Assembly (NCBI GenBank): GCA_002197545.1
Contig: NFUO01000139.1
Span: 1 to 33,583, forward strand
DNA length: 33,583 nt
Direction of reading: 5' to 3'
Origin: Acidobacteria subdivision 2 bacterium RH1 MAG20
Lineage (GTDB): Bacteria; Acidobacteriota; Terriglobia; Terriglobales; Acidobacteriaceae
A program made the translations under genes and the position numbers. The stretch's first letter is position 1. Every line of letters begins with the position of its first letter. Below the pieces are notes generated by a model, which was given only the letters and a program-made list of their open reading frames with translations, did not search any database and had not been told where the DNA came from. Positions 174-32,710 of this stretch are shown piece after piece.

Positions 174-190
174 CGCGTCATTCTGACGCG
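174..190. other. Perfect hairpin upstream of the first gene
   Basis: CGCGTCA and TGACGCG form a perfect 7-bp stem around a TTC loop. No T-tract follows, so this is not a clear intrinsic terminator. The rest of positions 1-267 shows no ORF I recognise. A SD-like AAAGGTGA lies just before the ATG at 268. Confidence 0.5.
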
Positions 191-267
191 GCCAAGATAT
201 GCTTTATTCCCTGCCAAATTACACTTTATTTCACATCAACAACAACAAACTCCAAAAAGGTGAACCG

Positions 268-8045: not shown

Positions 8046-8840
8046 ATGAGGATCGAGCACAGATTGCCCTCAAACCTGATACATCGCGGACCAGTTCGTG
8101 TGCTGATCGTTGGAGCAGGCGGCACCGGAAGTTCGATCGCCATGAACCTGCCGTATCTCGATCAGGCGATGCGTGTGTGGGGACACGCGAGCGGTCTCGA
8201 CGTGTCCATGATGGACGCCGATACAGTTTCTGCGACGAACTGCGTCCGTCAACCCTTTTCAGCCTCCGACATCGGCCAGAACAAAGCCACCGTGTTGATC
8301 AACCGCATCAACATCTTCTGGGGAACGAAGTGGACGGCCATTCCCAATCGATTTCATTCGCGCTCCTTTGAGAGCGATCGTGCAAGTGTCCCAGACGTTC
8401 TGATCGGCTGCGTCGATACGCGCGAGGCCAGGAAAGCCATCGAGGAATCGTTCACCCGCGCCTTGACCGGCACCTACTATTGGCTCGATCTCGGCAACAA
8501 CGCTGCCAGTGGACAGTATGTTCTTGGCCAGCCGCTGAACGGGAGGAATCGCCGCAAGGCAGAGCGCCTGCGCACAGTAAGCGAGTTGTATCCGGAGATT
8601 GTGGATGCCGATGCCGGAGAAGATCCTCTCCCGAGTTGCTCCGCAGTTGAGGCATTGGACCGGCAGGAGCCATTCATCAACCCGGTCCTCGCGGTGAGCG
8701 CGCTTGCGATGCTGGGACAGCTCTTTCGCTACGGCAAGCTCAGCTATCACGGCGCATTCTTCAACGCGAGGACTGGCCATACGAGTGCGCTGCCAGTCGA
8801 TCCTGCTCTGTGGTCCAGAACGATGAAATTGAAACGATAA
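8046..8840 (+). CDS. PRTRC system ThiF-family (E1-like) protein, 3' end replaced by transposon
   Basis: 264-residue E1-like adenylyltransferase. A nucleotide-binding loop (LIVGAGGTGSS) lies near residues 20-30, the acidic DADTVSATNCVRQPF motif near 57-71, a GCVDTREAR segment follows, and a conserved PSCSAVEALDRQ lies near 198-209. ThiF/MoeB relatives activate a carboxyl terminus with ATP; the PRTRC substrate is unknown. The last five residues (MKLKR) and the TAA come from the left end of the Tn7-like transposon. The original tail RKRSRKMAA is stranded at 17029-17057. The new tail is also basic, so the protein may still work. Confidence 0.85.
   Translation: MRIEHRLPSNLIHRGPVRVLIVGAGGTGSSIAMNLPYLDQAMRVWGHASGLDVSMMDADTVSATNCVRQPFSASDIGQNKATVLINRINIFWGTKWTAIPNRFHSRSFESDRASVPDVLIGCVDTREARKAIEESFTRALTGTYYWLDLGNNAASGQYVLGQPLNGRNRRKAERLRTVSELYPEIVDADAGEDPLPSCSAVEALDRQEPFINPVLAVSALAMLGQLFRYGKLSYHGAFFNARTGHTSALPVDPALWSRTMKLKR
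8819..8823. repeat. Left 5-bp target-site duplication (AACGA)
   Basis: AACGA lies directly outside the left tip of the Tn7-like element and is repeated directly outside the right tip at 17024-17028. Five-bp duplications are standard for Tn7-like transposition. Confidence 0.8.
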
Positions 8841-8942
8841 GTTGGCCATAACGGCCAGCTTATCGTTCCAATCCATAGCGGCCATGATATGGGTCTACAT
8901 TTCAAATCAACCATATTCTGGCCACTTGGCCAAATTATGGTT
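8824..8942. repeat. Left transposon end with paired inverted TnsB-like sites
   Basis: Fifteen-bp repeats occur as head-to-head pairs. AACGATAAGTTGGCC (8833-8847) faces GGCCAGCTTATCGTT (8853-8867). AACCATATTCTGGCC (8909-8923) faces GGCCAAATTATGGTT (8928-8942). A weaker palindromic CCATAGCGGCC/ATGATATGG unit lies between at 8873-8892. The first pair also makes a strong hairpin and contains the new thiF stop codon, so it could end transcription from the PRTRC operon. Confidence 0.8.
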
Positions 8943-9106
8943 CATTTGTTTGATAGATGAATCTCGATGAGTGACTCGGGCTGTAGGCGTCAACTGAGGG
9001 TTACTTCCGGTTTGCCGGTAAACCAGGACCTACCGTAGATCGCTCGACGCTGCGGGACCATGCAGGACGTTTCTCACAATAAACTTTTAGTTCTATCATT
9101 GCTGCC

Positions 9107-9865
9107 ATGTCCACGGCTCAAACTTGGGACCCGGCGTCTTATGCGCGAAACGCGAGATTCGTATCCGACTTAGGATCGCCCGTCGTGGATTTGCTTGCAC
9201 CTAAGCCCGGCGAAAGGATCCTCGATCTTGGTTGCGGAGACGGCGTACTAACGAAAAAGCTAGCGGATCTGGGTTGCGAAGTGGTTGCGGTCGATTCGAG
9301 CATTCCGCAGATCGAAGCGGCGAGGAAGCTCGGCTTGAACGCATCCGCGATCAGCGGCGAAGACCTGCCGTACAAGGAGGAATTCGATGCTGTGTTTAGC
9401 AATGCCGTGCTGCACTGGATTAGGCGTGCAGATGTGATGCTTGCTGGAGTGTATCGTTCTTTGAAACCAGGCGGCCGATTTGTTGCTGAATGTGGAGGCC
9501 ATGGTTGCGTTCACAAGATCCGGACTGCTCTGGTACAAGCATTGGACCGCCGTGGGTTTGATGGTGAGGCTCGCGTTCCGTGGTATTTCCCCACACCCGG
9601 CGACTACGCCACCAGGCTGGAACGCGCAGGGTTTCGTGTCGATAGCATTGCGCTGATCCCGCGTCCAACTCCCTTGCCTGGCGACATCATTGATTACTTG
9701 GAAACTTTTGCTCTCAACTTTTTTCAAGGCTTCTCCGATGATATTCGCAACGACTATCTGCAAGAGGTTCGGATGATCCTGGAACCGCAACTTCGCGCTG
9801 CCAATGGAACCTGGGTTGCCGACTACGTACGACTGCGATTCGCGGCAACCAAAGCTCGCGACTGA
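9107..9865 (+). CDS. Class I SAM-dependent methyltransferase (transposon cargo)
   Basis: 252-residue methyltransferase of the type-11 small-molecule class. Motif I ILDLGCGDGVLTKKL lies near residues 38-52, motif II VVAVDSS near 59-65, an FDAVFSNAVLHWI motif near 93-105, and LKPGGRFVAECGG near 119-131. It resembles trans-aconitate methyltransferase-like enzymes in layout; the substrate cannot be told. No signal peptide. It lies just inside the left transposon end, outside the transposition operon and on the opposite strand, so it is cargo with its own expression signals. Domain call firm, role unknown. Confidence 0.8.
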   Translation: MSTAQTWDPASYARNARFVSDLGSPVVDLLAPKPGERILDLGCGDGVLTKKLADLGCEVVAVDSSIPQIEAARKLGLNASAISGEDLPYKEEFDAVFSNAVLHWIRRADVMLAGVYRSLKPGGRFVAECGGHGCVHKIRTALVQALDRRGFDGEARVPWYFPTPGDYATRLERAGFRVDSIALIPRPTPLPGDIIDYLETFALNFFQGFSDDIRNDYLQEVRMILEPQLRAANGTWVADYVRLRFAATKARD

Positions 9866-10045
9866 TACGGTGTGGAACAAGGCTACAAAGCAATCCTCCA
9901 GTCCGAGGGTGCCGCTCTCGACATCGACCTGTTGCAGGGCACGGCCCCGATCCGCTCATTGATGGGCGATCCCCGCTTGCCGAATTGAATCGAAGAGGGT
10001 TTATAGGCGCATTGCGAAAACGTTGGGATAGACTGGGAGCGCGCT

Positions 10046-10528
10046 ATGGCTACCCGCATTCTGCTCGCTGCTATCCTCTGCTTCATGCCCACGTTCGCCG
10101 CCGCCCAGACCGACACCGGCCCTGGGCGTGATGTCGCGGCAATACACCACCTTATCGGGCAGTACACCAAAGCTGTGGATACTGTTGATCTGAACCTACT
10201 CTCGCAAATCTGGTCTCACTCGCCCGAGGTCTCGTTCATCTATCCCCTGGGTGAGGAGCACGGCTTCGATGCCATCAAGCAGCAGGTCTTTCAGAACATA
10301 ATGGGCGGCATGTTCTCGGCACGCGATCTTGAGACGCGCGGTGTAGAGATCCACGTGAGCGGCAACGCGGGGTGGTCGGAATTCCACTGGACTTTTCATG
10401 CGACGATGCGGAAAGACGGATCGGTCGTGACGACGCATGGCGTCGAAACCCAGATTTACCGCAGAGAGTCTGGAAACTGGCGGCTGGTCCACGTCCACTA
10501 CTCCGAAGACCACCAGCCCGTCCCCTGA
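10046..10528 (+). CDS. Secreted SnoaL/NTF2-like protein (transposon cargo)
   Basis: 160 residues with a clear signal peptide: MATRILLAAILCFMPTFAAA, with likely cleavage after AAA near residue 20. The mature part has the SnoaL-like/DUF4440 order: a helix (AAIHHLIGQYTKAVDTVDLN), SQIWSHSPEVSFIYPLG, a middle helix, then strands ending in the typical GNWRLVHVHYSED. Such cone-shaped NTF2-like folds serve as small binding or catalytic domains, here probably periplasmic. It sits between the methyltransferase and the convergent tniQ. No link to transposition is evident. Confidence 0.75.
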   Translation: MATRILLAAILCFMPTFAAAQTDTGPGRDVAAIHHLIGQYTKAVDTVDLNLLSQIWSHSPEVSFIYPLGEEHGFDAIKQQVFQNIMGGMFSARDLETRGVEIHVSGNAGWSEFHWTFHATMRKDGSVVTTHGVETQIYRRESGNWRLVHVHYSEDHQPVP

Positions 10529-10835
10529 GCACTTGCCTAAATACAACGTTCCCCTTGGACAAGCTGGCGTCGATGCTTGGTTTGCTATCGGGAGTGTCAA
10601 GGCGCCAGCGATGAACCCGGAGTTTCATCACCGACCGTTAGTTACAGTTCGTTGCTGGTGATGATTAGGTATGTAGATGAGCGCATAATCGCCATCACTC
10701 GCCGAAAGTATGAGCCACATTGCCGAATAGTCCGCATTTCGGACAAGCGGTTGTCCCGCTATTGAGTGGCGAGAGAGAACCTTCTTCCGCGAATTTTCGG
10801 CCAGGTTGTGGTTGATCTCACACTACACCCTGGCC
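10529..10835. other. Intergenic stretch between cargo and tniQ
   Basis: About 300 bp between the convergent cargo gene and tniQ. I see only short ORFs without a plausible SD or a protein-like composition, and no strong hairpin. Nothing further is claimed. Confidence 0.4.
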
Positions 10836-12587
10836 CTACAGTGCCTCGACAGTCCGTGCGGCTTCCTCCAGTTTTCCGCGAATTTGTTTCAAGGCTCTGC
10901 TGGTGGAATGAACGCTTGTTAGCGATGGACTTCTCTTCGAAATGGTCGACAGGACTCGTTTGCGTGAAGGGTATTTCCCACCGGATGTGATCTCTTGGAT
11001 TGCGAGGCTAACCTCTCTTTCGTAGAGGAGTTCGATCTTTTGTCGTTCTGAAGAACGATGCGCAAGGTAGCGTTGATGGAGACGTCTGTGAAGGTCCTGA
11101 TGGGTCACGCGTAGTGTATTTGCGTTGCAATGCAATCGAGAAGCAAGTTCAGGGAATGAAACAGGTGCTTCGTTGAGTGCTCTCTTGAGCGCTTCCTCAA
11201 CTGTCGCGAACTGGAATTGACGACGATCTAACCGGCAGGAGGAAAGGCGAGTACAAAGTTCAGGACAAGCGCTCCGAAGACTGTGGAGGCTGATTCCAAG
11301 GCGTTCCGCAACTTCAGCTACGGTGAGGGGTGGCATTTCGATAAGCGCCCTCTTAAGCTCCAATTCGCTTCTGTCAAACCGTCGCTTTCGCTTGGCCTGA
11401 ATCGCGGCTGTGAGCTCTGGGAACCAATATCGTCCCATGACACAGTGACGATAGCCGAGGCTGCGGAAGATGTCCCTGACCGACCGCGGGACATCCATTT
11501 CGAGTGCGGCTTCCATAGACGCTTTGATCTCCGCTTTGGCAGCTTCCCGGTCGCTTGGAGAAAGTGCCCATAGGCGGGTCCTGGTCATCGGATAGTCGGG
11601 CTCTCGCCTGGATATCTCACTGCGCTTCATTAACTTCGATCGCTCTGCCCGGATGGCCTCCCTAGCCTGGATCCACACTTCGTCAGAAACAGGAATCTGC
11701 TCGATGAGGAATCTGCTCAGAGGTACTCTGAGATTACGCGTAATCACGATGAGCAGCGGCAACGAGGGACGATGTGTCTCACTCAGCCAGTCTGTGAGGG
11801 ACTTGTCGCTGATCCGCGCAATGCGGCAAAGGAGCAGCCGGTTTCCATCAGCCCAATCCTCAATGGCTCTGTGAATGTTGTTCCGAAGATGGAAAAGCTG
11901 TGGCCGATTCTGGGGGATGTTCGAGGACAGCAGAACCCCAACTTCTCTCGCCACTTGCACACGAAAGTCCAGGTCTCGCCCTTTTTCAGCACGCAGTGGT
12001 CCACTAGCGTTGGTCCCTAGCCACGTACCGCAGTGATTACAAGCTCCGGCGAGTCCGCGGGCTGAGAGCGGTAGAGGGCGTTTCTCACAGCAGGGGCAGC
12101 GTTCCTCCAGCAAAATCTCATGCACAGGACACGCGGTAACCGATGTGAGCGCCCACAGCAACGAATCGTAGACTCCGCCGTCCTGACTACGGCGTTCCTC
12201 GTAGCAACGTGGACACCACGTTCGATGTCGGCGCAGAATTCCATCTGTGGCAAAAATACTCCGCCAAGGTAGTAGAGTCAGAGCATCAAGATCGTTCCTC
12301 GAAGTGAGCTCTTGGAGAGCCGCTACCCACTGCATAAAGTAAGGACCGAGACCGTTCAGCGAATGTAGCGCCGCACAACTGAATCGTTTTGGACTTGTGG
12401 GCAAAGAGGGAAAGATTTCTTGTCGAATCAGAGTCCCCGGCGAGACTGCATGAGCATCTGCTAAACGCATCACATAGCTCGTCAGACTTTCGACCTGGGC
12501 GGTTCCAATGGCCTTCGGCGGAAGAGAATACAGGCGACTCCGCGCTGGCAAATTGGTGGGTGCGATAGACCAGAAGTCATAGACCAT
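10836..12587 (-). CDS. tniQ: TniQ/TnsD-like target-selection protein
   Basis: 583 residues from ATG 12587, which overlaps the tnsC end by 11 bp. The N-terminal TniQ domain has the LPP...ESLTSYVMRLADAHAVSPG signature near residues 22-51. It is followed by zinc-binding cysteines: CPRC at 125-128, CPVH at 153-156, CPCC at 164-167 and CNHC at 183-186. The long C-terminal half contains several degenerate helix-turn-helix units (for example LTVAEVAERLGISLHSLRSA and VSFPELASRLHCNANTLRV), as in TnsD-type proteins that recognise a fixed attachment site. Short TniQ partners of CRISPR systems lack this region. I infer site-directed targeting; the site is not proven. Confidence 0.85.
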   Translation of the reverse strand: MVYDFWSIAPTNLPARSRLYSLPPKAIGTAQVESLTSYVMRLADAHAVSPGTLIRQEIFPSLPTSPKRFSCAALHSLNGLGPYFMQWVAALQELTSRNDLDALTLLPWRSIFATDGILRRHRTWCPRCYEERRSQDGGVYDSLLWALTSVTACPVHEILLEERCPCCEKRPLPLSARGLAGACNHCGTWLGTNASGPLRAEKGRDLDFRVQVAREVGVLLSSNIPQNRPQLFHLRNNIHRAIEDWADGNRLLLCRIARISDKSLTDWLSETHRPSLPLLIVITRNLRVPLSRFLIEQIPVSDEVWIQAREAIRAERSKLMKRSEISRREPDYPMTRTRLWALSPSDREAAKAEIKASMEAALEMDVPRSVRDIFRSLGYRHCVMGRYWFPELTAAIQAKRKRRFDRSELELKRALIEMPPLTVAEVAERLGISLHSLRSACPELCTRLSSCRLDRRQFQFATVEEALKRALNEAPVSFPELASRLHCNANTLRVTHQDLHRRLHQRYLAHRSSERQKIELLYEREVSLAIQEITSGGKYPSRKRVLSTISKRSPSLTSVHSTSRALKQIRGKLEEAARTVEAL

Positions 12588-13731
12588 GGATAGCTCGCGG
12601 TGATTGGCTCTGGTTAAGGCCAACCTGATCTCGGCTGGGTTTGCGCTGCCCAACTCGAGTGCTGGACTTTCGCCGAACAGCTTCAGCCGTTGGTGGCATG
12701 CTGGAACTGGCACACATACCCAGTACCTCGCGGAGGCGGGCTTGAGCCTGGTTCACTGATGACAGTTGGGCTTCACCTTCATGTGCCTCGACCGCGATCT
12801 TTTCACACTGGGACACAGAAAGGGCAGTCGTTTCCAAGTGGTGGGCAGTCATCGTTACGCAACCATCTTTCAACGATGCGATTAATGCTCGATCCAGCCA
12901 CTCTTTCAAGATACCGACGCAACCGACGGAGCGTTCGTAGAGCAGGTCCCAAAGTGCCACGAGGTCAGGTTGCTCGTCCAAGGGGAGACGTTCCTGGAAC
13001 GTGAGAATAATGTTCTTGAAGATGCGGAGATCTGCCTGACTCTCTGCGCTATACCTGCTGAAATGAATATCGAGAGTTCTGCGACCCAATTGACCATTGA
13101 GTTGACGTAATCGGAGCAAGTCGTAGGTTCCAAGCAGGATGTGGACGGTTTGCGTGCAGTTGGCCAGAGACTTGATGACTTCAAGCTGGTCTGCCAGCCT
13201 CCTGCCCGATGCGATGCGAGTGAGATGTTGCGCTTCATCCACCAAAATTGCTGCAGGCCTGCGCTGCAAAATGGCCAATTCTAAAGCATGACGAAGCTCC
13301 ACTGCAGCGGAACGGGGACCCAGAAGGTGCTGAGCATGAGAGTCGTACATTAGATGAGCCAAATTCGGCTTGAGCTTACGGTCGAGCATCGGTTCGTTCA
13401 ATGCAAGTAGAGCGCGCCGATAGTGATCTCTCCAACTGAAATTGCCATTATCGGGAGCGGCCGCTTCCACAGCGACGAACGGCACATAGCTTTGGTCAGT
13501 CTTCATGACAGCAAGATTGCGCTCGGCCAACAATTGCTGGAGCTTCAATCGTAGAGTGGTTTTACCAACGCCCGTTGGTCCGTACACCATCATGATTGAG
13601 CCGGGAGATGCCTCGTCGATGGCCGCCGTGAGCAGATCCCTTGCGTCCAGAAGCCTTGGGTGCGCTACAGTGAGCGAGCGAAATTCGCGTGTGCGATCAG
13701 CGATTTGCTGCGGTGAGTAGGCTGACTTCAT
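12577..13731 (-). CDS. tnsC: TnsC/TniB-like AAA+ transposition ATPase
   Basis: 384-residue AAA+ protein that should join target selector TniQ to the transposase. Walker A GPTGVGKTT is at residues 51-59 and Walker B ILVDEAQH at 162-169. The VHILLGTYDLLRLRQLNGQL segment following fits the sensor 1 region of TniB/TnsC ATPases. The gene starts 2 bp after the tnsAB stop and overlaps tniQ at its end, so the three are one leftward operon. The C-terminal tail is Ser/Arg/Gln-rich and probably disordered. Confidence 0.9.
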   Translation of the reverse strand: MKSAYSPQQIADRTREFRSLTVAHPRLLDARDLLTAAIDEASPGSIMMVYGPTGVGKTTLRLKLQQLLAERNLAVMKTDQSYVPFVAVEAAAPDNGNFSWRDHYRRALLALNEPMLDRKLKPNLAHLMYDSHAQHLLGPRSAAVELRHALELAILQRRPAAILVDEAQHLTRIASGRRLADQLEVIKSLANCTQTVHILLGTYDLLRLRQLNGQLGRRTLDIHFSRYSAESQADLRIFKNIILTFQERLPLDEQPDLVALWDLLYERSVGCVGILKEWLDRALIASLKDGCVTMTAHHLETTALSVSQCEKIAVEAHEGEAQLSSVNQAQARLREVLGMCASSSMPPTAEAVRRKSSTRVGQRKPSRDQVGLNQSQSPRAIHGL

Positions 13732-13733
13732 TT

Positions 13734-16427
13734 CTAAAATGCTCCGTATGTCTCGTATTCCTCATCAGCATCTGGAACCTGGATTTGCGGTGAGGCAGCG
13801 ACCAGAAACGGGCGCATAGAAGATGGATTACAGTTGACTAACGGTGATTCAGCTATGGAGGCCGGTTCTGAGCGTGTCTTTCCGGTCTGCAGGTCGCGAA
13901 GCCGCTGAGAGAGTAGGAGTTCCTGAACTTCGACGGATTGAAGGAAATCGCCAATTGTCTTTGCAGAGAGATCGCGCTGCGATGAGTGCTTGTTTCGCCT
14001 CCGTCGGAGCTCCTGAGTGGCGAGCATCATCTCTCGCTCTGAGTGCCCCTGGAAGACAGCGTAATATTCCGAATGACATTGGACCCATTGGTCTTTCACA
14101 AAGGCGAAAGCTATGCCTGAGTTGAAGGGATCGTAACGTATCGGTACTTGTCTCCCTTCAACTTCTGGATCATGGAACAGATCCGACCAATAGTAGATGT
14201 AGTGAATCTTCACGCCCCTACCTGCGAGGACCTTGGCCGCCCCTCTGGGAGTTGTCGGAAGCGTCATGATGAAGAACTCTCGATCATTGCTAATACGGCG
14301 CCGAGGACGCAACCCGGCATTCGTCATTCCAGCTTCGTAAGTGTCTCCGGGACTCTGTCCCAGGGCCGGGTGGTCGAGCGAGTCATAAACTTCGTAGAGG
14401 TATTTGGCTAACCGTTCATGCAAATCGGCGAGTGCCCATACAGCGTGGTTCTTGGGATTCACGCTCGCGGTGACCTGCCGAATCTGGCGCATGATCTGGG
14501 TGTTCCCGCGAAGGTTATGGATGAACTGGGAGTTGCAAGTCCCGAAAAGCCGTTCGACAACAGATCCAAACCGCGCTTTTGCAGGCGGCCGGCTCTTCTT
14601 GGTGCATTCGTATCTCGCCAAGAGCGTCTCAAAGTAGACGCTCCCAAACTCTGCCCCTCCATCGACTACGAATATTTGTGGGAGCCGCTCGTGACGGCCC
14701 ACGCACTCTCGGATGATCATCATGCAAGAGCGATAGCTCGGCGGATCGAAGGACAGCGTGAATGCCAGTACGCGCCTCGAGTATGCATCTGTGAGCAACG
14801 AAAGCCAAGGTCGTCCAAGACCCCGGCCAGTCGCAGAGCACACCAGTTCGACATCCAACTCAGTATGGTCGAGGTGCGCAATTTCGAACGGTCGATCCCC
14901 ATGACGAGGAGTGGTTAGTTCCAGTTCCCAATAGAAGGCCTCGCGCGGGTATGCCGCTCGAGGTCCCATTCTGCGCAGGGTTTGTGAATGGCCTGCTTGT
15001 CCGCGTACAGCCAAGCGAAACGTTCGGTAGCTAGGAGCGATTAGATCTTGATCTCTGCACGCGATTTGGAGGGCACTCCATGAGGCGTACATGCCCTTTT
15101 GTTTAGGTGTCTCATAATCCTCATGAATGATCGTTGCCATGAGCTGTCTGGACGCCTCTGGCAATTTGTGTGTGCTATTGCCTTTCTTTTGGGTCTCAGG
15201 GAGCAGGCCTAAATATCCGTTCCCATATAGGGTTTCGGCTTTCCTGTACATCGAGATCCATCGACGAGATGTCCGTGAAGGGACCGTGGTCTCAGACGTT
15301 GCCCGCTCCCCATCCAGCATTTTGCGGACGACCTCATAACGAAAGTTGGCCTGCCGTAAATCATCCTGGCTGGCTCGCGAGAGCCGCTGCTCAACCTCCA
15401 CATTGGTGCAAGATGATGGTGAAGGCTCCATCGTCAAATGGCCGCCTTCAACCAATGACTGAAACGCCGCAACAGGAAGTTGCGCGATCGAGTCATCATC
15501 GATACGGCGCAAAATGATTCGCGTACGGCCACAGTTGACGACTTCCCATTGCCTACCATCCCAATTTGCGACGCTGCCTGACCTCGGCTGAGCGGCGCGC
15601 GCATCATTCGAAGGTTTCAGTATCACCTTTCGAGCCTGAACATGGTCTGCAGCGGCCCGCGCATCTGCGAAGATGGCAACGCTGTCCGGCTGTGCAAGCA
15701 GTGAGCTGCGAAGATCTACGTGCAACTCACCGAATGCAATCAACAAATGAATGTCGTCGCAATTGGCGCTGCTGCCCGCGGTCGCCAGCAATTGTTGAAG
15801 AGAAATGCCAGGGTGCGCATTTACGTGTGCAATCAGCAGATTCTTTGTAGTAAGCGCGATAGATGTTCTGTCATCCCGAAGGTAGTCCTCTAGGAATTGA
15901 ATATTGCGTTGATACACCCAATTGATGTCCCGTGACGAGCGAACGCAGTAGGTCAGACCGAATGCCTTCGCGTGTTCTTCTCCTGGGGGACAATACCAGA
16001 TGTCGTCATGCCGACAATATCGATGAGGACTTCGCTCCGACCAACTGACAAGTTCCTCTTCAGTCTTACACTCCTCCCATCCAGCACTATCTGTGCGGAT
16101 GACGAAGTAGTCAGAGGTGTGGAGGGTCACAATTCGCTTTCCAACTGAACTCTTGTACTCGAGTTTGTAGGAAGGGGGCTGGTCCCAATATTCGAGCACG
16201 TTGGGATCGTGCTCCAACTCATAGATTCTTGCTAATTCGACACGGTGGCTTTCAAACTGGATCGTGATACCCATCTTTTTGCTTGGGTATCTACCGCTTA
16301 CGTTGCGGCGTCCACCTCCTACACGACGGGATGGATCGGAGGAGCGAATCTGGCGAACAATCGAACGACCGTTATCCGGCAGTCGCACGCTCTGAAACCA
16401 AGCAAGCAGTTCTTCGTTCCCCAGCAT
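13734..16427 (-). CDS. TnsA-TnsB fusion transposase
   Basis: 897 residues combining both Tn7 transposase activities. The N-terminal part (about 50-185) is a TnsA-like PD-(D/E)xK nuclease: E64 in ESHRVELARIYELEHDPNV, D106 in HTSDYF, and E119/K121 in WEECK. A winged-helix-like linker follows. The C-terminal part carries the DDE integrase core: D520 (HLDHTELD), D589 (VVDGGAEF) and E625 (VVERLFG). TnsA cuts the 5' ends and TnsB the 3' ends in Tn7, so the fusion should make complete cut-and-paste excision possible. ATG 16427 has GGGAGGG just upstream. All expected catalytic residues are visible. Confidence 0.9.
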   Translation of the reverse strand: MLGNEELLAWFQSVRLPDNGRSIVRQIRSSDPSRRVGGGRRNVSGRYPSKKMGITIQFESHRVELARIYELEHDPNVLEYWDQPPSYKLEYKSSVGKRIVTLHTSDYFVIRTDSAGWEECKTEEELVSWSERSPHRYCRHDDIWYCPPGEEHAKAFGLTYCVRSSRDINWVYQRNIQFLEDYLRDDRTSIALTTKNLLIAHVNAHPGISLQQLLATAGSSANCDDIHLLIAFGELHVDLRSSLLAQPDSVAIFADARAAADHVQARKVILKPSNDARAAQPRSGSVANWDGRQWEVVNCGRTRIILRRIDDDSIAQLPVAAFQSLVEGGHLTMEPSPSSCTNVEVEQRLSRASQDDLRQANFRYEVVRKMLDGERATSETTVPSRTSRRWISMYRKAETLYGNGYLGLLPETQKKGNSTHKLPEASRQLMATIIHEDYETPKQKGMYASWSALQIACRDQDLIAPSYRTFRLAVRGQAGHSQTLRRMGPRAAYPREAFYWELELTTPRHGDRPFEIAHLDHTELDVELVCSATGRGLGRPWLSLLTDAYSRRVLAFTLSFDPPSYRSCMMIIRECVGRHERLPQIFVVDGGAEFGSVYFETLLARYECTKKSRPPAKARFGSVVERLFGTCNSQFIHNLRGNTQIMRQIRQVTASVNPKNHAVWALADLHERLAKYLYEVYDSLDHPALGQSPGDTYEAGMTNAGLRPRRRISNDREFFIMTLPTTPRGAAKVLAGRGVKIHYIYYWSDLFHDPEVEGRQVPIRYDPFNSGIAFAFVKDQWVQCHSEYYAVFQGHSEREMMLATQELRRRRNKHSSQRDLSAKTIGDFLQSVEVQELLLSQRLRDLQTGKTRSEPASIAESPLVNCNPSSMRPFLVAASPQIQVPDADEEYETYGAF

Positions 16428-16448
16428 GAACCCTCCCCTGAGATCACA

Positions 16449-16784
16449 TCATTCGCGGTTCTTCCCCTTGCGCTGATTCTTCAGCGCATTCACGAGCCGC
16501 ACTCCAGCTTCGTTGATCAGTTCCTGTAGTTGACGGCCGTTCTCGATGGCTTGTTGAATGTCTGGAGCCAGGTCATCGGGTATATAAATTGAGAACCGTT
16601 CGGACCCCTTACGCCCGCTCAGTACATAGCTGGTGTGGCCTTCCCCATAGGTGCAAGCTGTGCAGTTTTTGCGAATGCACCGGGTCTTTCTGAGAGAAAG
16701 TGAACCCTCCGCAATCGGCCACATCTGCCCAATAGAGGCTTGGAACCAGTGGCGGACCTCAACGGGGTTCTCAGAGCGTTGCAT
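16449..16784 (-). CDS. DUF6788-like small protein heading the transposition operon
   Basis: 111 residues from ATG 16784; the frame stays open to 16877. The core reads GSLSLRKTRCIRKNCTACTY with a C-x4-C-x2-C cluster, followed by GEGHTSYVLSGRKGSERFSIYIPDDL and a helical, basic C-terminus. That order matches DUF6788-type proteins, small probable zinc-binding proteins of unknown role often found with mobile elements. It ends 21 bp before tnsA-tnsB, so it is the first gene of the operon. The start lies inside a perfect inverted repeat (16777-16810), so it may regulate itself. No clear SD precedes the start, so the N-terminus is uncertain. Confidence 0.65.
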   Translation of the reverse strand: MQRSENPVEVRHWFQASIGQMWPIAEGSLSLRKTRCIRKNCTACTYGEGHTSYVLSGRKGSERFSIYIPDDLAPDIQQAIENGRQLQELINEAGVRLVNALKNQRKGKNRE

Positions 16785-16810
16785 GTATGTACTATGCCAT
16801 ACATGCAACG
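16777..16810. promoter_or_regulatory. 13-bp perfect inverted repeat at the operon start (candidate operator)
   Basis: CGTTGCATGTATG (16777-16789) and CATACATGCAACG (16798-16810) are perfect reverse complements separated by 8 bp (TACTATGC). They overlap the proposed start of the DUF6788-like gene. Geometry and position fit a dimeric repressor site controlling the transposition genes. Confidence 0.6.
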
Positions 16811-16881
16811 TGGTTTTAGAATCAAGAACGGCCCGTGGATCAACAACGTCAACATTCCACACAAAAGCCAGAAGCACTCGC

Positions 16882-17023
16882 GGCCAGGTTATGCCTGCAA
16901 TCTGAGACTTGCGGCCACTTTATGGTTTCAAACCTGTAGTTCGGGCCAAACGGCACCGCAGGAATTGGCAACTCCCGGCCAACTTATGGTTTCTTCGTCG
17001 GCCAACATATCGTTGCTGTCACA
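16882..17023. repeat. Right transposon end with direct TnsB-like sites
   Basis: Same-orientation copies of a GGCCAnnTTATnGTT repeat occur at 16913-16927, 16977-16991 and 17000-17014, with a weaker copy at 16882-16896. The outermost ends 9 bp before the tip (GCTGTCACA). The arrangement is direct and more compact near the tip, unlike the paired sites of the left end; unequal ends are typical of Tn7-like elements. Confidence 0.8.
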
Positions 17024-17028
17024 AACGA
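17024..17028. repeat. Right 5-bp target-site duplication (AACGA)
   Basis: Second copy of AACGA, directly outside the right tip and equal to 8819-8823. Confidence 0.8.
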
Positions 17029-17057
17029 GAAAGCGCTCGCGAAAGATGGCTGCATAA
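17029..17057 (+). pseudogene. Displaced 3' end of the PRTRC thiF gene
   Basis: When joined after base 8823, these 29 bases continue the thiF frame and encode RKRSRKMAA plus TAA. The restored protein would have 268 residues. Here the tail has no start and is separated from its gene by the 8.2-kb transposon. Confidence 0.85.
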
Positions 17058-17123
17058 TTTTCACGTGATGTAAGACTTCACGGTGGGTGCGGCGGTATGG
17101 TGGAAACGTACCGGAGACCGCCC

Positions 17124-29386: not shown

Positions 29387-30394
29387 TCAGAGAGAACGGA
29401 GGAAAGCCATCAGAGATGGATTATCTTTCCAGGGCCGTTTAGATACAGGGTTGGAATGGAGAGCGTTGGTCTTTTCCAGCATCTGAGCCTTGCGTTCGAG
29501 ATCGATCTCGACATAGATGTTGGTGGTGTCGATAGAGACATGACCGAGCCATGCACGAATAGTGTTGATGTCCACGCCGGCACGTAGTAGGTGCGTAGCG
29601 GTGGTGTGGCGGATGGTGTGGGGGCTAATGCATTTGTTGGCCAAAGATGGGCAAGGAGCCATGGCCTTGCGAACATATTTCTTGATGAGGCGATGAACAC
29701 CGTGACGGGTAATAGCCTGCCCATGACGGTTTACGAAGACCGGCTCGTCAGACGAACGGTTGCGGGTGAGCGAAAGTAATTCCGCTGCTGTGGCAGCCCA
29801 TAAGGGACAACGACGGGTTTTGCCGCCCTTACCGAATATTTCGACATGGCTCATAGCGTTGGGCCTGAGATTTAGTTTGTTGATCGGCAGGCTTGATGCT
29901 TCTGAGACGCGGGCACCGGAATTGTAGAGAAAGAGGAGCAATGTGTAATCACGCCGACCCAGTACCGTGTTACGATCCGGAGCGGCTAATAGTGCATCCA
30001 TTTGGGGCTTTTCAAGGTAATTGAGTTGAGGACGATGAAAACGCTTGAAAGGCACTGCACGAATCGTAGCGCACCATGCGACATGCTCAGGGCTGTGCTC
30101 AGCCACGAAGCGAGCCATCGCATGAATAGCGGCCAAGCGTTGATTGCGTGTGCGGATTTTACAGTGACGCTCATGTTCAAGGTGGTCGAGGAAGGCCTTC
30201 AAAACACCGCTGGAGAGATCAGCGATACAAAGATGGTCAATGGGGTGTTGGCTATGAATGCTGATCCATGGAAGTAAAATGGACAAAGTGTCACGATAGC
30301 TGCGTTGCGTGTTCTTGGAGAGGTTTCGCTCCGCGATCACATGCTCCAGAAGAAAGCGCCGTACCCAACTGCCAAGCAAGTTCGCACTAGTCAA
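29387..30394 (-). CDS. Tyrosine recombinase, third gene of the RIT trio (TTG start)
   Basis: 335 residues. Catalytic set R162 (NSGARVSEASSL), K192 (GKGGKTRR), H259/R262 (SPHTIRHTTATHLL), H285 (LGHVSID) and Y294 (TTNIYVE) is complete, as in XerC/D-type recombinases, with an N-terminal SAM-like core-binding domain (about 10-115). The start is TTG at 30394, behind GGAGGTGA and overlapping the upstream gene by 8 bp, so translation is probably coupled. RIT proteins are thought to act together on the element ends. Confidence 0.85.
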   Translation of the reverse strand: MTSANLLGSWVRRFLLEHVIAERNLSKNTQRSYRDTLSILLPWISIHSQHPIDHLCIADLSSGVLKAFLDHLEHERHCKIRTRNQRLAAIHAMARFVAEHSPEHVAWCATIRAVPFKRFHRPQLNYLEKPQMDALLAAPDRNTVLGRRDYTLLLFLYNSGARVSEASSLPINKLNLRPNAMSHVEIFGKGGKTRRCPLWAATAAELLSLTRNRSSDEPVFVNRHGQAITRHGVHRLIKKYVRKAMAPCPSLANKCISPHTIRHTTATHLLRAGVDINTIRAWLGHVSIDTTNIYVEIDLERKAQMLEKTNALHSNPVSKRPWKDNPSLMAFLRSL

Positions 30395-31328
30395 GGCTCA
30401 CCTCCGGTCGAGCGTAGCGCTCGAAGCAAAGGCTGGCCTCTGTGAGTAGTTCTGTTGCCATCGTCAAGTAGTGCGCAGTGTCCTGAATACTGCCATGTCC
30501 AAGGTAGGTTGTGAGGTGGGGCAGTAAACGCTGCACGTTCTTACCCTCTCGATACCACGTAACGATCCGTACCAGGGCAAAGCTGTGACGAAAATCATGA
30601 AGTCGCGGCTGGTATCTCGCCTCCCTGGAACGATGGACCCCGGCTTCTTCGCGCAACTTCTGGAAAACATCTTCGGCAGTATTGCGAGTGATCCTCTGAA
30701 GCTTTACTGTTCCCAGCAGTGGTGTGTTCTCTGTGTGATGGACCGATGGCCACTGCTGATCGATATAGGCTTCTAAGACGCGCCGCAAGTCAGGTCCAAC
30801 GGGAACGAGGCGGCTCTTAAAGAACTTGGTCTCGCGAATAGTGAGCACCCCAGAATTGCGATCAAAATCTTCAAGATTCAACCGCAACGCTTCACTGATC
30901 CGGAGGCCGGTTCCATAAAGTAACAACAAGAGCGTACGGATGGTATTGGGTGTAAGAAACCACGTGTATCGATGGCGCGAGTCGGCAGCATCAATCAACT
31001 TGCGCATATCGTCGTTGGTGTAGATGTAGGGTTGAAACTGCTCTGGTAATTGTGGTTTGCTGCGTGGTAGAGGGCTGTTCTGAACGTAATGATGAGCCTG
31101 CGCATAACGGTAGAACGTTGCCAGAGTCTGATACTTGTAAAACCAGTTAGCAGTCACTGGACCGCTGCCGTCCAAGAAGCGTCGAACAGCGCACGGGTTT
31201 ACTTGCTTTATATCGCCGTCGCCTACGCTCTTCACAAAGGCACGTAGCTTGACAGCCTTTGACTTGAAGTCCTTTCCGAGAGAACGCTTATATGCAATGT
31301 AGGACTCAACGACCTGTGACAGTGTCAT
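30387..31328 (-). CDS. Tyrosine recombinase, second gene of the RIT trio
   Basis: 313 residues from ATG 31328, which forms an ATGA overlap with the upstream recombinase and has GGAGG before it. The catalytic set R143 (GTGLRISEAL), K168/K171 in the beta-hairpin, H244/R247 (LHDFRHSF), H278 (LGHGS) and Y287 (TAHYLTM) is complete. The frame is open further upstream, but only inside the neighbouring gene. N-terminal core-binding domain about residues 4-90. Confidence 0.85.
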   Translation of the reverse strand: MTLSQVVESYIAYKRSLGKDFKSKAVKLRAFVKSVGDGDIKQVNPCAVRRFLDGSGPVTANWFYKYQTLATFYRYAQAHHYVQNSPLPRSKPQLPEQFQPYIYTNDDMRKLIDAADSRHRYTWFLTPNTIRTLLLLLYGTGLRISEALRLNLEDFDRNSGVLTIRETKFFKSRLVPVGPDLRRVLEAYIDQQWPSVHHTENTPLLGTVKLQRITRNTAEDVFQKLREEAGVHRSREARYQPRLHDFRHSFALVRIVTWYREGKNVQRLLPHLTTYLGHGSIQDTAHYLTMATELLTEASLCFERYARPEVSLD

Positions 31329-32665
31329 AGTAGTCCTCCAAGGCTGATCGCAGCTACGGCCTGAAGCGCTTCGATGCTGCCTCTGGGATAGATCGGTGTG
31401 GCAATATGAGCACTGTGCTCGGTATGGGTAACCAGGCCACTTAGATCGAGCTGACCAACTTCTTGCAACGCGACCAGGTTGGTCTTGGCATATATCTGTG
31501 TAGATTCCAAGGAGACGTGGCCGAGATGTTCGGCAATATCCTTGAGCGTGAATCTTTCCGCCAACAAATGGGTGGCGCAGGAATGCCGAAGAGCATGGGG
31601 CCCATAGCATGGTAGTGTGAGACCCAACTGGAATAAACGATTATGTACCGTAATCGCGAGACAGGTTGCCGTTAACGGTCGAAATGGCTGAATGAGTGTG
31701 ACGAACACCTCACGATACGAACATCGTGGACGCACTTCGCGAAGGTACCGCAGGATTGCATCGCCCACATTGCGGAGCAAAGGATAATGTTGAGTTTTGC
31801 GCTGCTTAGTACAGCGAACATGCATCACTTCCTGTTCCCAGTCAATGTCGTCCAGACAGAGATGGCGCACTTCACTGCTGCGAAACCCATAAACTGCCAG
31901 CAGTAATAACATGGCGTGGTCGCGAATGTCGTTCGGAGTGTCACCAGAAGATGCAACTAGAAGGCGCTGCACATCACTCCACAGCGGTCCTCGTGGTAAC
32001 CGTTCGAGTTTATAAATACGAGGCGCATCGATGGTGTTGGCAAGGCCCTGAACACACCAATTCATCGATTGAGCAAAACGAATAAAGTTGCGCAGTGCCT
32101 TGACATGAATAGAAATAGTTGTCCGCTTCCATCGCCGTTGTGCGGCCTGCCAAACAAAGTAACGAGATATATCCTCGGGAGTTATCTTGCGCAGTGTCTT
32201 TACTTGGTCTGCAGCCCAGTTAAGGAATGGGCGCAAGTGTGTCTTATGCATTTTTAAGGAAGCATCTGCTAGACCGCGCTCTTGTTGTTCGAAATGAAGG
32301 AACGCATCCTGCTCAGTGGTGAACGGAAGTTGGGACTCCGGTTTCTGTAAACGACCCAGCATGCGCAGCCAGTTTGTCGCGTGAAATACAAACTTTGTTT
32401 CTATGCGATGCCGACTGGCACGGCAGCGAACAAGCGTGGCACTCCACTGTCTGGCAGCAGCTTCAATTTGGGTGGGCGTAACTGACGGGAGACTGAGCGG
32501 AAGTTGCTCCGCCATATGGTAGAGCAGATTTGCAATTTGTCTCAAGGTCGGCAGAGAGCGGCCTTCTTCCATCAGCAACGTCAGATAGCGTTCTCGTTCT
32601 TTTGCATATGGACCGTTGCGGTGGCGGCTGAGATTAGATCGACGGAATAGAATTCTCTCGAACAT
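31325..32665 (-). CDS. Tyrosine recombinase, first gene of the RIT trio
   Basis: 446 residues from ATG 32665, with GAGGAG just upstream. It is longer than its partners because of an extra N-terminal region (about 100 residues) and a C-terminal extension after the tyrosine. Catalytic residues: R262 (GFRSSEVRHL), lysine in the TKQRK hairpin (287-290), H357/R360 (PHALRHSCATHLL), H383 (LGHVSLES) and Y392 (QIYAKTN). It begins about 45 bp inside the right-end motif array, so the promoter probably lies among the repeats and may be repressed by recombinase binding. Confidence 0.85.
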   Translation of the reverse strand: MFERILFRRSNLSRHRNGPYAKERERYLTLLMEEGRSLPTLRQIANLLYHMAEQLPLSLPSVTPTQIEAAARQWSATLVRCRASRHRIETKFVFHATNWLRMLGRLQKPESQLPFTTEQDAFLHFEQQERGLADASLKMHKTHLRPFLNWAADQVKTLRKITPEDISRYFVWQAAQRRWKRTTISIHVKALRNFIRFAQSMNWCVQGLANTIDAPRIYKLERLPRGPLWSDVQRLLVASSGDTPNDIRDHAMLLLLAVYGFRSSEVRHLCLDDIDWEQEVMHVRCTKQRKTQHYPLLRNVGDAILRYLREVRPRCSYREVFVTLIQPFRPLTATCLAITVHNRLFQLGLTLPCYGPHALRHSCATHLLAERFTLKDIAEHLGHVSLESTQIYAKTNLVALQEVGQLDLSGLVTHTEHSAHIATPIYPRGSIEALQAVAAISLGGLL

Positions 32666-32710
32666 GGTGAATCTCCTCTGAAAGTGGTGATTCCCCAAGT
32701 ATCGAGTTCA

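What the first reader, a model, noticed from the sequence alone, without database searches (positions are those of the whole stretch)
8819..17057. Exactly bounded Tn7-like insertion that rewrites the last residues of PRTRC ThiF
AACGA flanks both tips, the first TnsB-like repeat is 9 bp inside each tip, and joining the flanks with one AACGA restores a thiF frame ending RKRSRKMAA. The element supplies MKLKR and a TAA within its own first repeat. A basic tail is thus replaced with another basic tail, which would spare the host gene while inserting into it.
Basis: seen in the sequence. Interest (0 to 1): 0.85.

Follow-up and report, generated by a model that had tools for sequence, protein, structure and literature searches.

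The report
Transposon that re-tails its target gene
A Tn7-like jumping element, probably of soil bacteria, sits at one exact spot near the end of a gene found on many plasmids, and the tip of the element itself spells a short new ending and stop signal for that gene, so the gene is re-tailed rather than simply cut off.

Summary
An 8,200-bp element (8824-17023) lies between two AACGA copies (8819-8823, 17024-17028). The outermost TnsB-like site is 9 bp inside each tip, and joining the flanks restores thiF ending RTRKRSRKMAA. Two natural empty sites exist (L040, L041; ThiF 86-88% identical).

The element encodes a TnsA-TnsB fusion, TnsC, one TniQ protein whose model best matches a solved TnsD-TnsC-DNA complex, a DUF6788-like protein and two cargo genes.

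It looks recurrent. Eight other PRTRC ThiF proteins switch, exactly three residues after a conserved Trp, to tails such as MKLKR, MKLQR, LKLKR or MKQQL. All fit NTG + element tip + the TAA of a TnsB site. Trees scatter the nine ThiFs (AU test against one clade p = 1e-6). The DNA of those eight could not be read, so their transposons are inferred.

Ten sister left tips all begin TGT; seven would stop ThiF at once. The thiF-side tip reads TGA and gives five codons. Best reading: a single-TnsD element homing to a plasmid-type backbone gene, whose tip also codes a replacement tail. Homing is well supported; selection for the tail is inferred.

The parts
8046..8840 (+). PRTRC thiF; last five codons (MKLKR) and TAA supplied by the element, apart from the first base of the ATG
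   Evidence: TIGR03736 268 bits, cut-off 144.75; Pfam ThiF; frame
8819..8823 (.). left target-site duplication AACGA; the insertion point is 10 bp after the conserved Trp codon
8824..17023 (.). Tn7-like element, 8,200 bp
8824..8832 (+). left tip TGAAATTGA; codes the tail together with the first TnsB-like site
8833..8847 (+). outermost left TnsB-like site AACGATAAGTTGGCC; its TAA is the new thiF stop
8853..8867 (-). second left TnsB-like site, inverted partner of the first (5 bp apart)
8909..8923 (+). third left TnsB-like site (2 mismatches)
8928..8942 (-). fourth left TnsB-like site
9107..9865 (+). cargo: class I SAM-dependent methyltransferase
   Evidence: Methyltransf_11 3.7e-19
10046..10528 (+). 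cargo: SnoaL/DUF4440-like protein
10836..12587 (-). TniQ/TnsD-like target selector, 583 aa, C-terminal half predicted all-helical
   Evidence: PF06527 6.8e-19; model pLDDT 81, pTM 0.54; 8v32_J E 1.2e-18
12577..13731 (-). TnsC-like AAA ATPase
   Evidence: AAA_22 2.6e-16, TniB
13734..16427 (-). TnsA-TnsB fusion, 897 aa
   Evidence: TnsA N and C, rve, Mu C-terminal hits, most below curated cut-offs; D106, E119, K121 and D520, D589, E625 invariant in 16 aligned rows
16449..16877 (-). DUF6788-like small protein, found beside tnsAB in sister elements
   Evidence: 26.5 bits, cut-off 27.2; 7 of 10 sister loci
16882..16896 (-). fourth right TnsB-like site from the tip (3 mismatches)
16913..16927 (-). 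third right TnsB-like site
16977..16991 (-). second right TnsB-like site
17000..17014 (-). outermost right TnsB-like site
17015..17023 (-). right tip, TGTGACAGC read inward
17024..17028 (.). right target-site duplication AACGA
17029..17057 (+). displaced native thiF 3' end with its stop (RKRSRKMAA when joined)
   Evidence: L040 and L041
190..235 (.). probable end of a second, sister Tn7-like element, 32 bp upstream of the DUF6094 ATG (268); weak sites (2 and 4 mismatches)
   Evidence: same place as L077, L078, L079

Best explanation
This is a Tn7-like transposon (TnsA-TnsB fusion, TnsC, a single TnsD-type TniQ) that homes to the 3' end of the PRTRC thiF gene. Inferred: the C-terminal half of TniQ reads the conserved end of thiF and, through TnsC, places the left end 10 bp after the conserved Trp codon, in one orientation. 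Shown in the window DNA: the left tip (TGAAATTGA) and the first TnsB-like site (AACGATAA...) are read in frame as MKLKR and stop, replacing the native basic tail. Inferred: thiF-homing lineages gave up the TGT terminal triplet at this end and so removed an early stop, which lets the transposon end double as coding sequence and softens the cost to a gene that rides on plasmids and similar elements.
For: Exact TSDs and ends. Natural empty sites. Eight further ThiFs change to element-type tails at the same residue. The residue at W+4, which must be codable by NTG (M, L or V), is M or L in 9 of 9 with the tail, window included; of 164 others 158 have R or K and 3 have L or V. Every such tail ends 8 residues after the Trp, where the TAA of a TnsB site would lie; MKQQL-stop fits a site AACTATAA. 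In a 46-row tree the 9 labels need 9 changes (8 forced by well-supported branches; one clade rejected, p-AU 1.1e-6), and a 170-row quick tree gives 9, at least 6 forced. Thirty-nine TniQ relatives align at 42-92% identity. The TniQ model matches TnsD-TnsC-DNA. Sister left tips begin TGT in 10 of 10 that could be placed. No ThiF of 173 has the 4-residue tail that the opposite orientation would give.
Against: Six of the eight came from a search whose query carried the tail (120 of 215 hits listed), so they say nothing about frequency. None of 80 ThiF places in 52 of 398 genomes carries the element. TniQ binding to thiF is untested; within the last 60 codons of 33 thiF genes the third positions near the site are no better conserved than those further up. 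Eight of the ten comparison tips rest on motif and 9-bp spacing alone; only L076 and L078 have both TSDs. No intact element with a close TniQ was found in the genome samples searched. The bootstrap of the 46-row tree had not settled, and the neighbours I picked for P0243 were poorly chosen (ungapped identity 0.35).
Confidence: 0.85

Rival explanations
1. Homing to thiF is real, but the MKLKR tail is a by-product: the tip changed for transposase or drift reasons, and ThiF works, or fails, regardless of it.
For: No functional data; the TAA lies in the TnsB-like site and would be there anyway; tail net charge is lower than native (2 to 4 against a median of 6).
Against: The TGT triplet kept by 10 of 10 placed sister left tips and by the window's own right tip is lost on the thiF side in the window and, by inference from the second tail residue (K or R), in all 8 others.
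Confidence: 0.4
2. A single chance insertion in this strain, with no preference for thiF.
For: None of 80 ThiF places found in 52 of 398 genomes carries the element in the stretch read.
Against: Eight further tails at the same residue in scattered lineages.
Confidence: 0.05
3. The MKLKR-like tails are natural ThiF C-termini that arose repeatedly, and the window's insertion only happens to resemble them.
For: Their DNA was not seen; K or R at W+5 is also usual in native tails (149 of 164).
Against: Position, length, NTG-codable first residue and the fit to two TnsB-site variants all agree with the element; near relatives in the tree have arginine-rich tails.
Confidence: 0.06
4. The insertion damages the PRTRC operon by polarity (it parts thiF from orf17097 and PRTRC E) whatever happens to the ThiF tail, so it is not gene-sparing.
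For: The element separates thiF from the downstream genes; a stable hairpin overlaps the new stop.
Against: The paired inverted sites that form the hairpin occur in 7 of 10 placed sister left ends, so the hairpin is not special to thiF. Expression was not testable.
Confidence: 0.3

Closest known systems
Tn7 (TnsABC+D at glmS)
   Same: TnsA and TnsB activities, TnsC, a TniQ-domain TnsD, 5-bp TSD, arrays of TnsB sites, insertion at the 3' end of a conserved gene.
   Different: TnsA and TnsB are fused, no TnsE among the named genes, target is thiF of a plasmid-type cassette, insertion is inside the coding end, and the gene-side end is the left (tniQ/cargo) end. That Tn7 lands beyond the glmS stop and with its other end there is recalled.
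Type I-B2 / I-D CAST backbones (TnsAB, TnsC, TnsD; tRNA homing)
   Same: TnsAB, TnsC and TnsD; the second structural match is TniQ of a type I-B CAST (8fcu_P); TnsAB is up to 46% identical over most of its length to cyanobacterial plasmid copies.
   Different: One TniQ only; no cas hit in the element's six named genes, no CRISPR array; thiF instead of a tRNA gene (their targets from PMC11406308 and PMC10293859, passages seen).
Tn5053 family
   Same: One TniQ aimed at sites abundant on plasmids (res sites; PMC11406308, passages seen).
   Different: Target here is the end of a coding gene; a TnsA domain is present.
Sister acidobacterial elements upstream of DUF6094 (L077, L078, L079)
   Same: TnsAB 49-56% (L077, L078; not on the L079 contig), TnsC 46-47%, same site motif, paired left-end sites, left end next to the conserved gene.
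   Different: TniQ only 28-31% identical, other target, TGT left tips (and TGT right tip in L078).
Tn6022/AbaR at comM
   Same: Tn7-like element inside a coding gene.
   Different: It inactivates comM (PMC11406308, passages seen); here the frame is closed near the natural end.

Membership tests
Tn7-like transposons | TnsB-type DDE transposase with catalytic residues | tested here: met
   rve 25.4 bits (cut-off 32.6) and Mu C-terminal 22.0 (cut-off 21.7); D520, D589, E625 invariant in 16 rows; their assignment as the DDE triad is mine
Tn7-like transposons | TnsA endonuclease | tested here: met
   TnsA N 23.6 and C 22.4 bits, just below cut-offs 26.5 and 23.4; D106, E119, K121 invariant
Tn7-like transposons | TnsC AAA regulator | tested here: met
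   AAA_22 60.5 bits, cut-off 27; TniB 29.4, cut-off 22.4; 43-52% to sister TnsC
Tn7-like transposons | TniQ-domain target selector | tested here: met
   PF06527 69 bits, cut-off 27; TnsD structure match
Tn7-like transposons | 5-bp target-site duplication and arrays of TnsB sites | tested here: met
Tn7-like transposons | both tips 5'-TGT (rule recalled) | tested here: not met
   right tip TGT, left tip TGA; treated as a variation, as the other features are met
Tn7-like transposons | transposition activity, TniQ binding to the target | not testable with these tools
   needs bench work
CRISPR-associated transposon | cas genes and CRISPR array inside the element | tested here: not met
   six named ORFs without cas hits; no array among repeats of 8790-17070
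Tn5053 family | no TnsA; resolvase for cointegrates (recalled) | tested here: not met
   TnsA domain present; no resolvase hit among the six named ORFs
PRTRC ThiF (TIGR03736) | score above curated cut-off, beside PRTRC B and E | tested here: met
   268 bits against 144.75; PRTRC B and E neighbours

The most novel reading that the evidence does not exclude
A transposon terminus under double selection: it is at once the TnsB-bound end and the coding sequence for a replacement C-terminal tail of the homing gene. To do this, thiF-homing elements abandoned the TGT terminal triplet at that one end, turning an early stop into five codons that close on the TAA of the first TnsB site.
Probability: 0.5. 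Interest if true: 0.8.

Novelty: new variant of a known kind. Interest (0 to 1): 0.68.

Why it matters
Tn7-like elements usually pair a safe chromosomal home with a separate route to plasmids (PMC11406308, passages). Here the one recognised home is itself a gene carried by plasmids and similar elements (405 of 72,556 PLSDB plasmids hold a relative of this ThiF), so homing and spread could be the same step. It adds a new att site, in the same operon as a second one upstream of DUF6094, and it suggests that transposon ends can evolve to write the end of their target protein. That is directly testable and bears on designing insertions that keep the target protein.

Tried and rejected
Rejected: a chance one-off insertion (contradicted by eight further tails); a CAST (no cas hit or array); third-position conservation as a sign of the TnsD binding site (no excess). 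Led nowhere: viral-contig scans with the TniQ alignment and with a tip pattern (nothing); genome contigs with the single TniQ (nothing) and with the alignment (30 loci, highest identity 47%, L002, cut off by a transposase gene); TniQ profile searches of 396 phylum, 398 family, 62, 15, 80, 119 and 2 genomes (samples that overlap): no intact close relative. Plasmid searches gave TniQ relatives at 26-40% only. Literature: Tn7 with PRTRC (4 papers, one mention of Tn7 each; listing and abstract starts only); TniQ with ThiF with transposon (0 papers); Tn7-like with attachment site, TnsD, PRTRC (93 papers with two terms, 20 listed, none of these with PRTRC); 'thiF' occurs 0 times in the main texts of PMC10293859 and PMC8649781. 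Passages of PMC11406308, PMC10293859 and PMC8649781 were seen, not whole texts. Searches for insertions that code a target's C-terminus (20 of 84 papers listed; 8 of 673) showed nothing relevant in the lists; that is not proof of absence.

Rows dropped: 6 of 176 ThiF rows in the 170-row tree (no Trp motif or too short); the 46-row tree took 6 near neighbours of each labelled row. P0240 and P0245 lack the motif. Of ten sister loci, L001 gave no left tip; the tip counts use L028, L074-L081 and the second window end.
Full report
What is there. Window 8824-17023 is an 8,200-bp element bounded by AACGA repeats. Its ends hold arrays of a 15-bp motif, AACSATAANTTGGCC: six copies with at most one mismatch, all near the tips, 0.02 expected. 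On the minus strand lie a 142-aa DUF6788-like protein, a TnsA-TnsB fusion, TnsC and a 583-aa TniQ; on the plus strand a methyltransferase and a SnoaL-like protein as cargo. Alignment of the fusion with 15 relatives keeps D106, E119 and K121 in the TnsA part and D520, D589 and E625 in the TnsB part, which I take as the catalytic residues. GC is 54.2% against 58.5% and 55.4% in the flanks.

The target. The interrupted gene is PRTRC thiF (TIGR03736, 268 bits), between PRTRC B and E. The element closes the frame as W-SRT-MKLKR-TAA; joining the flanks gives W-SRT-RKRSRKMAA. Of 398 family genomes 52 gave 80 ThiF places. All 80 were read: none shows an element-type tail, or TnsAB, TnsC or TniQ in the stretch fetched. 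A few run off their contigs (L056 and two 5' halves in G699). In G584 a sister element lies about 10 kb upstream of an intact thiF (L080).

The site is used again and again. A search with ThiF listed 120 of 4,374 homologues; two end MKLKR or MKLQR. A second search, scored on the last 41 residues of a composite query that carries the tail, listed 120 of 215 and brought six more. The eight tails after the Trp are ARTMKLKR, RLVMKLQR, SKTLKLKR, RKLMKLQR (twice), SKMLKLQR, SKTLRLQR and SKLMKQQL. Of 173 listed ThiFs with the motif, nine have exactly 8 residues after the Trp: these eight and one native-looking tail, SKTRKRSK. If the target gives the first base and the element gives TG, the residue at W+4 must be M, L or V: it is M or L in all nine element tails (window included); of 164 others 158 have R or K, two L and one V. 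The stop always falls where the TAA of a TnsB site would be; MKQQL fits a site AACTATAA. The nine ThiFs do not group: 9 changes in the 46-row careful tree, 8 forced by well-supported branches, one clade rejected at p = 1.1e-6 (bootstrap not fully settled); 9 changes, at least 6 forced, in the 170-row quick tree. So the same nucleotide was probably hit independently, most simply by homing. The DNA behind these eight proteins was out of reach, which is the main weakness.

The selector. TniQ has relatives at 42-92% identity (39 aligned with it), from sources without context. Its AlphaFold model (mean pLDDT 81, pTM 0.54) best matches a TnsD-TnsC-DNA complex (8v32_J, E 1.2e-18, TM 0.47 by the query) and then TniQ of a type I-B CAST (8fcu_P). 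The C-terminal half is helical; I read it as tandem helix-turn-helix units, an inference. Binding to the conserved thiF end is inferred from Tn7, whose TnsD reads the glmS 3' coding end (PMC11406308, passages).

The tip. In sister elements the left tip can be placed by the motif and its 9-bp spacing: L074 TGTAACTTG, L075 TGTGACTTG, L076 TGTCACTTT, L077 TGTGACGTA, L078 TGTGACTTG, L079 TGTGAGTTA, L080 TGTGATTTA, L081 TGTCACTTA, a neighbour element in L028 TGTGGCATA, and a second end in this window TGTGAAATA. All ten begin TGT. L076 and L078 are proven by both TSDs; L074 and the second window end rest on weaker sites. In the thiF frame seven of the ten would stop after one residue (NTG TGA or NTG TAA); three would not. 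The thiF-side tip reads TGAAATTGA, so the frame becomes NTG AAA TTG AAA CGA TAA. In the other eight tails the second residue is K or R, so the third tip base cannot be T. The element's own right tip keeps TGT. I infer that the thiF-side tip was remodelled to lengthen the reading frame. Whether ThiF needs the tail is unknown; native tails have median net charge +6, element tails +2 to +4.

Orientation and neighbours. By the convention in PMC11406308, the right end is the one upstream of the transposition genes; here thiF adjoins the left end. The same holds at a second site: L077, L078 and L079 carry sister elements whose left end lies 28, 33 and about 31 bp upstream of a DUF6094 gene (Pfam for L077 and L078, by recognisable sequence for L079). 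The window has a probable end of this kind at 190-235, 32 bp upstream of its own DUF6094 gene, so the operon shows two homing sites, both apparently occupied. These sisters share 49-56% TnsAB (L077, L078) but only 28-31% TniQ, as expected if the selector sets the target.

Compared with what is known. It is a Tn7-like element by the features tested except the TGT left tip. It resembles Tn5053 in having one TniQ and a plasmid-type target, and I-B2/I-D CAST backbones in machinery, without cas hits. I found no paper that names thiF or PRTRC as a Tn7-like target in the searches (open PMC library only). PRTRC ThiF is widespread on plasmids: 405 of 72,556 PLSDB records, 107 of them conjugative and 74 mobilizable. 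Whether this window is plasmid, ICE or chromosome is not known; that the host is an acidobacterium is inferred from the nearest ThiF and sister elements.

Verdict: observation confirmed; homing to thiF likely (0.85); tail-sparing tip about even. A new variant of a known kind.

Noticed in passing
window 190-235: Probable end of a second sister Tn7-like element (TGT tip, two weak TnsB-like sites) 32 bp upstream of the DUF6094 ATG; its body lies outside the window.
   Followed up: partly
L077, L078, L079: Sister Tn7-like elements inserted 28-33 bp upstream of DUF6094, a second homing site in the same kind of operon.
   Followed up: partly
L131-L134 (genome G699): Two different thiF copies of one genome are each split at the same codon (YWL|, about residue 147) at contig ends, with the same inner tip sequences on both sides and TGGCT repeated: another element that seems to choose one spot inside thiF.
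   Followed up: partly
window 16449-16877; L001, L028, L075, L077, L078, L080, L081: A DUF6788-like protein sits just upstream of tnsAB in 7 of 10 sister loci; possibly an unrecognised transposition accessory protein.
   Followed up: partly
window 8828-8872: The first two left TnsB-like sites form a 20-nt inverted repeat; as RNA a hairpin over the new thiF stop (-31.8 kcal/mol for 75 nt, z -6.6). Similar pairs occur in 7 of 10 placed sister left ends.
   Followed up: partly
L028:1678-1750: Left end of one element abuts the right end of another with ACCCA between them, as if two elements stacked at one site.
   Followed up: no
L077:9632-11587: Open frame joining a DUF6094 start to histidine-kinase ATPase and CheW domains; a deletion fusion or an assembly join.
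   Followed up: no
L081:5831-5930: The left tip of a sister element is followed by a frame that looks like the C-terminal part of a tyrosine recombinase (read by eye).
   Followed up: no
L002:632-1440: The TniQ relative of highest identity in held genomes (47%) is cut off by a transposase gene that looks IS5-like (name recalled).
   Followed up: no
window 29387-32698: Three tyrosine recombinase genes in a row on the minus strand, like a recombinase-in-trio element (name recalled).
   Followed up: no
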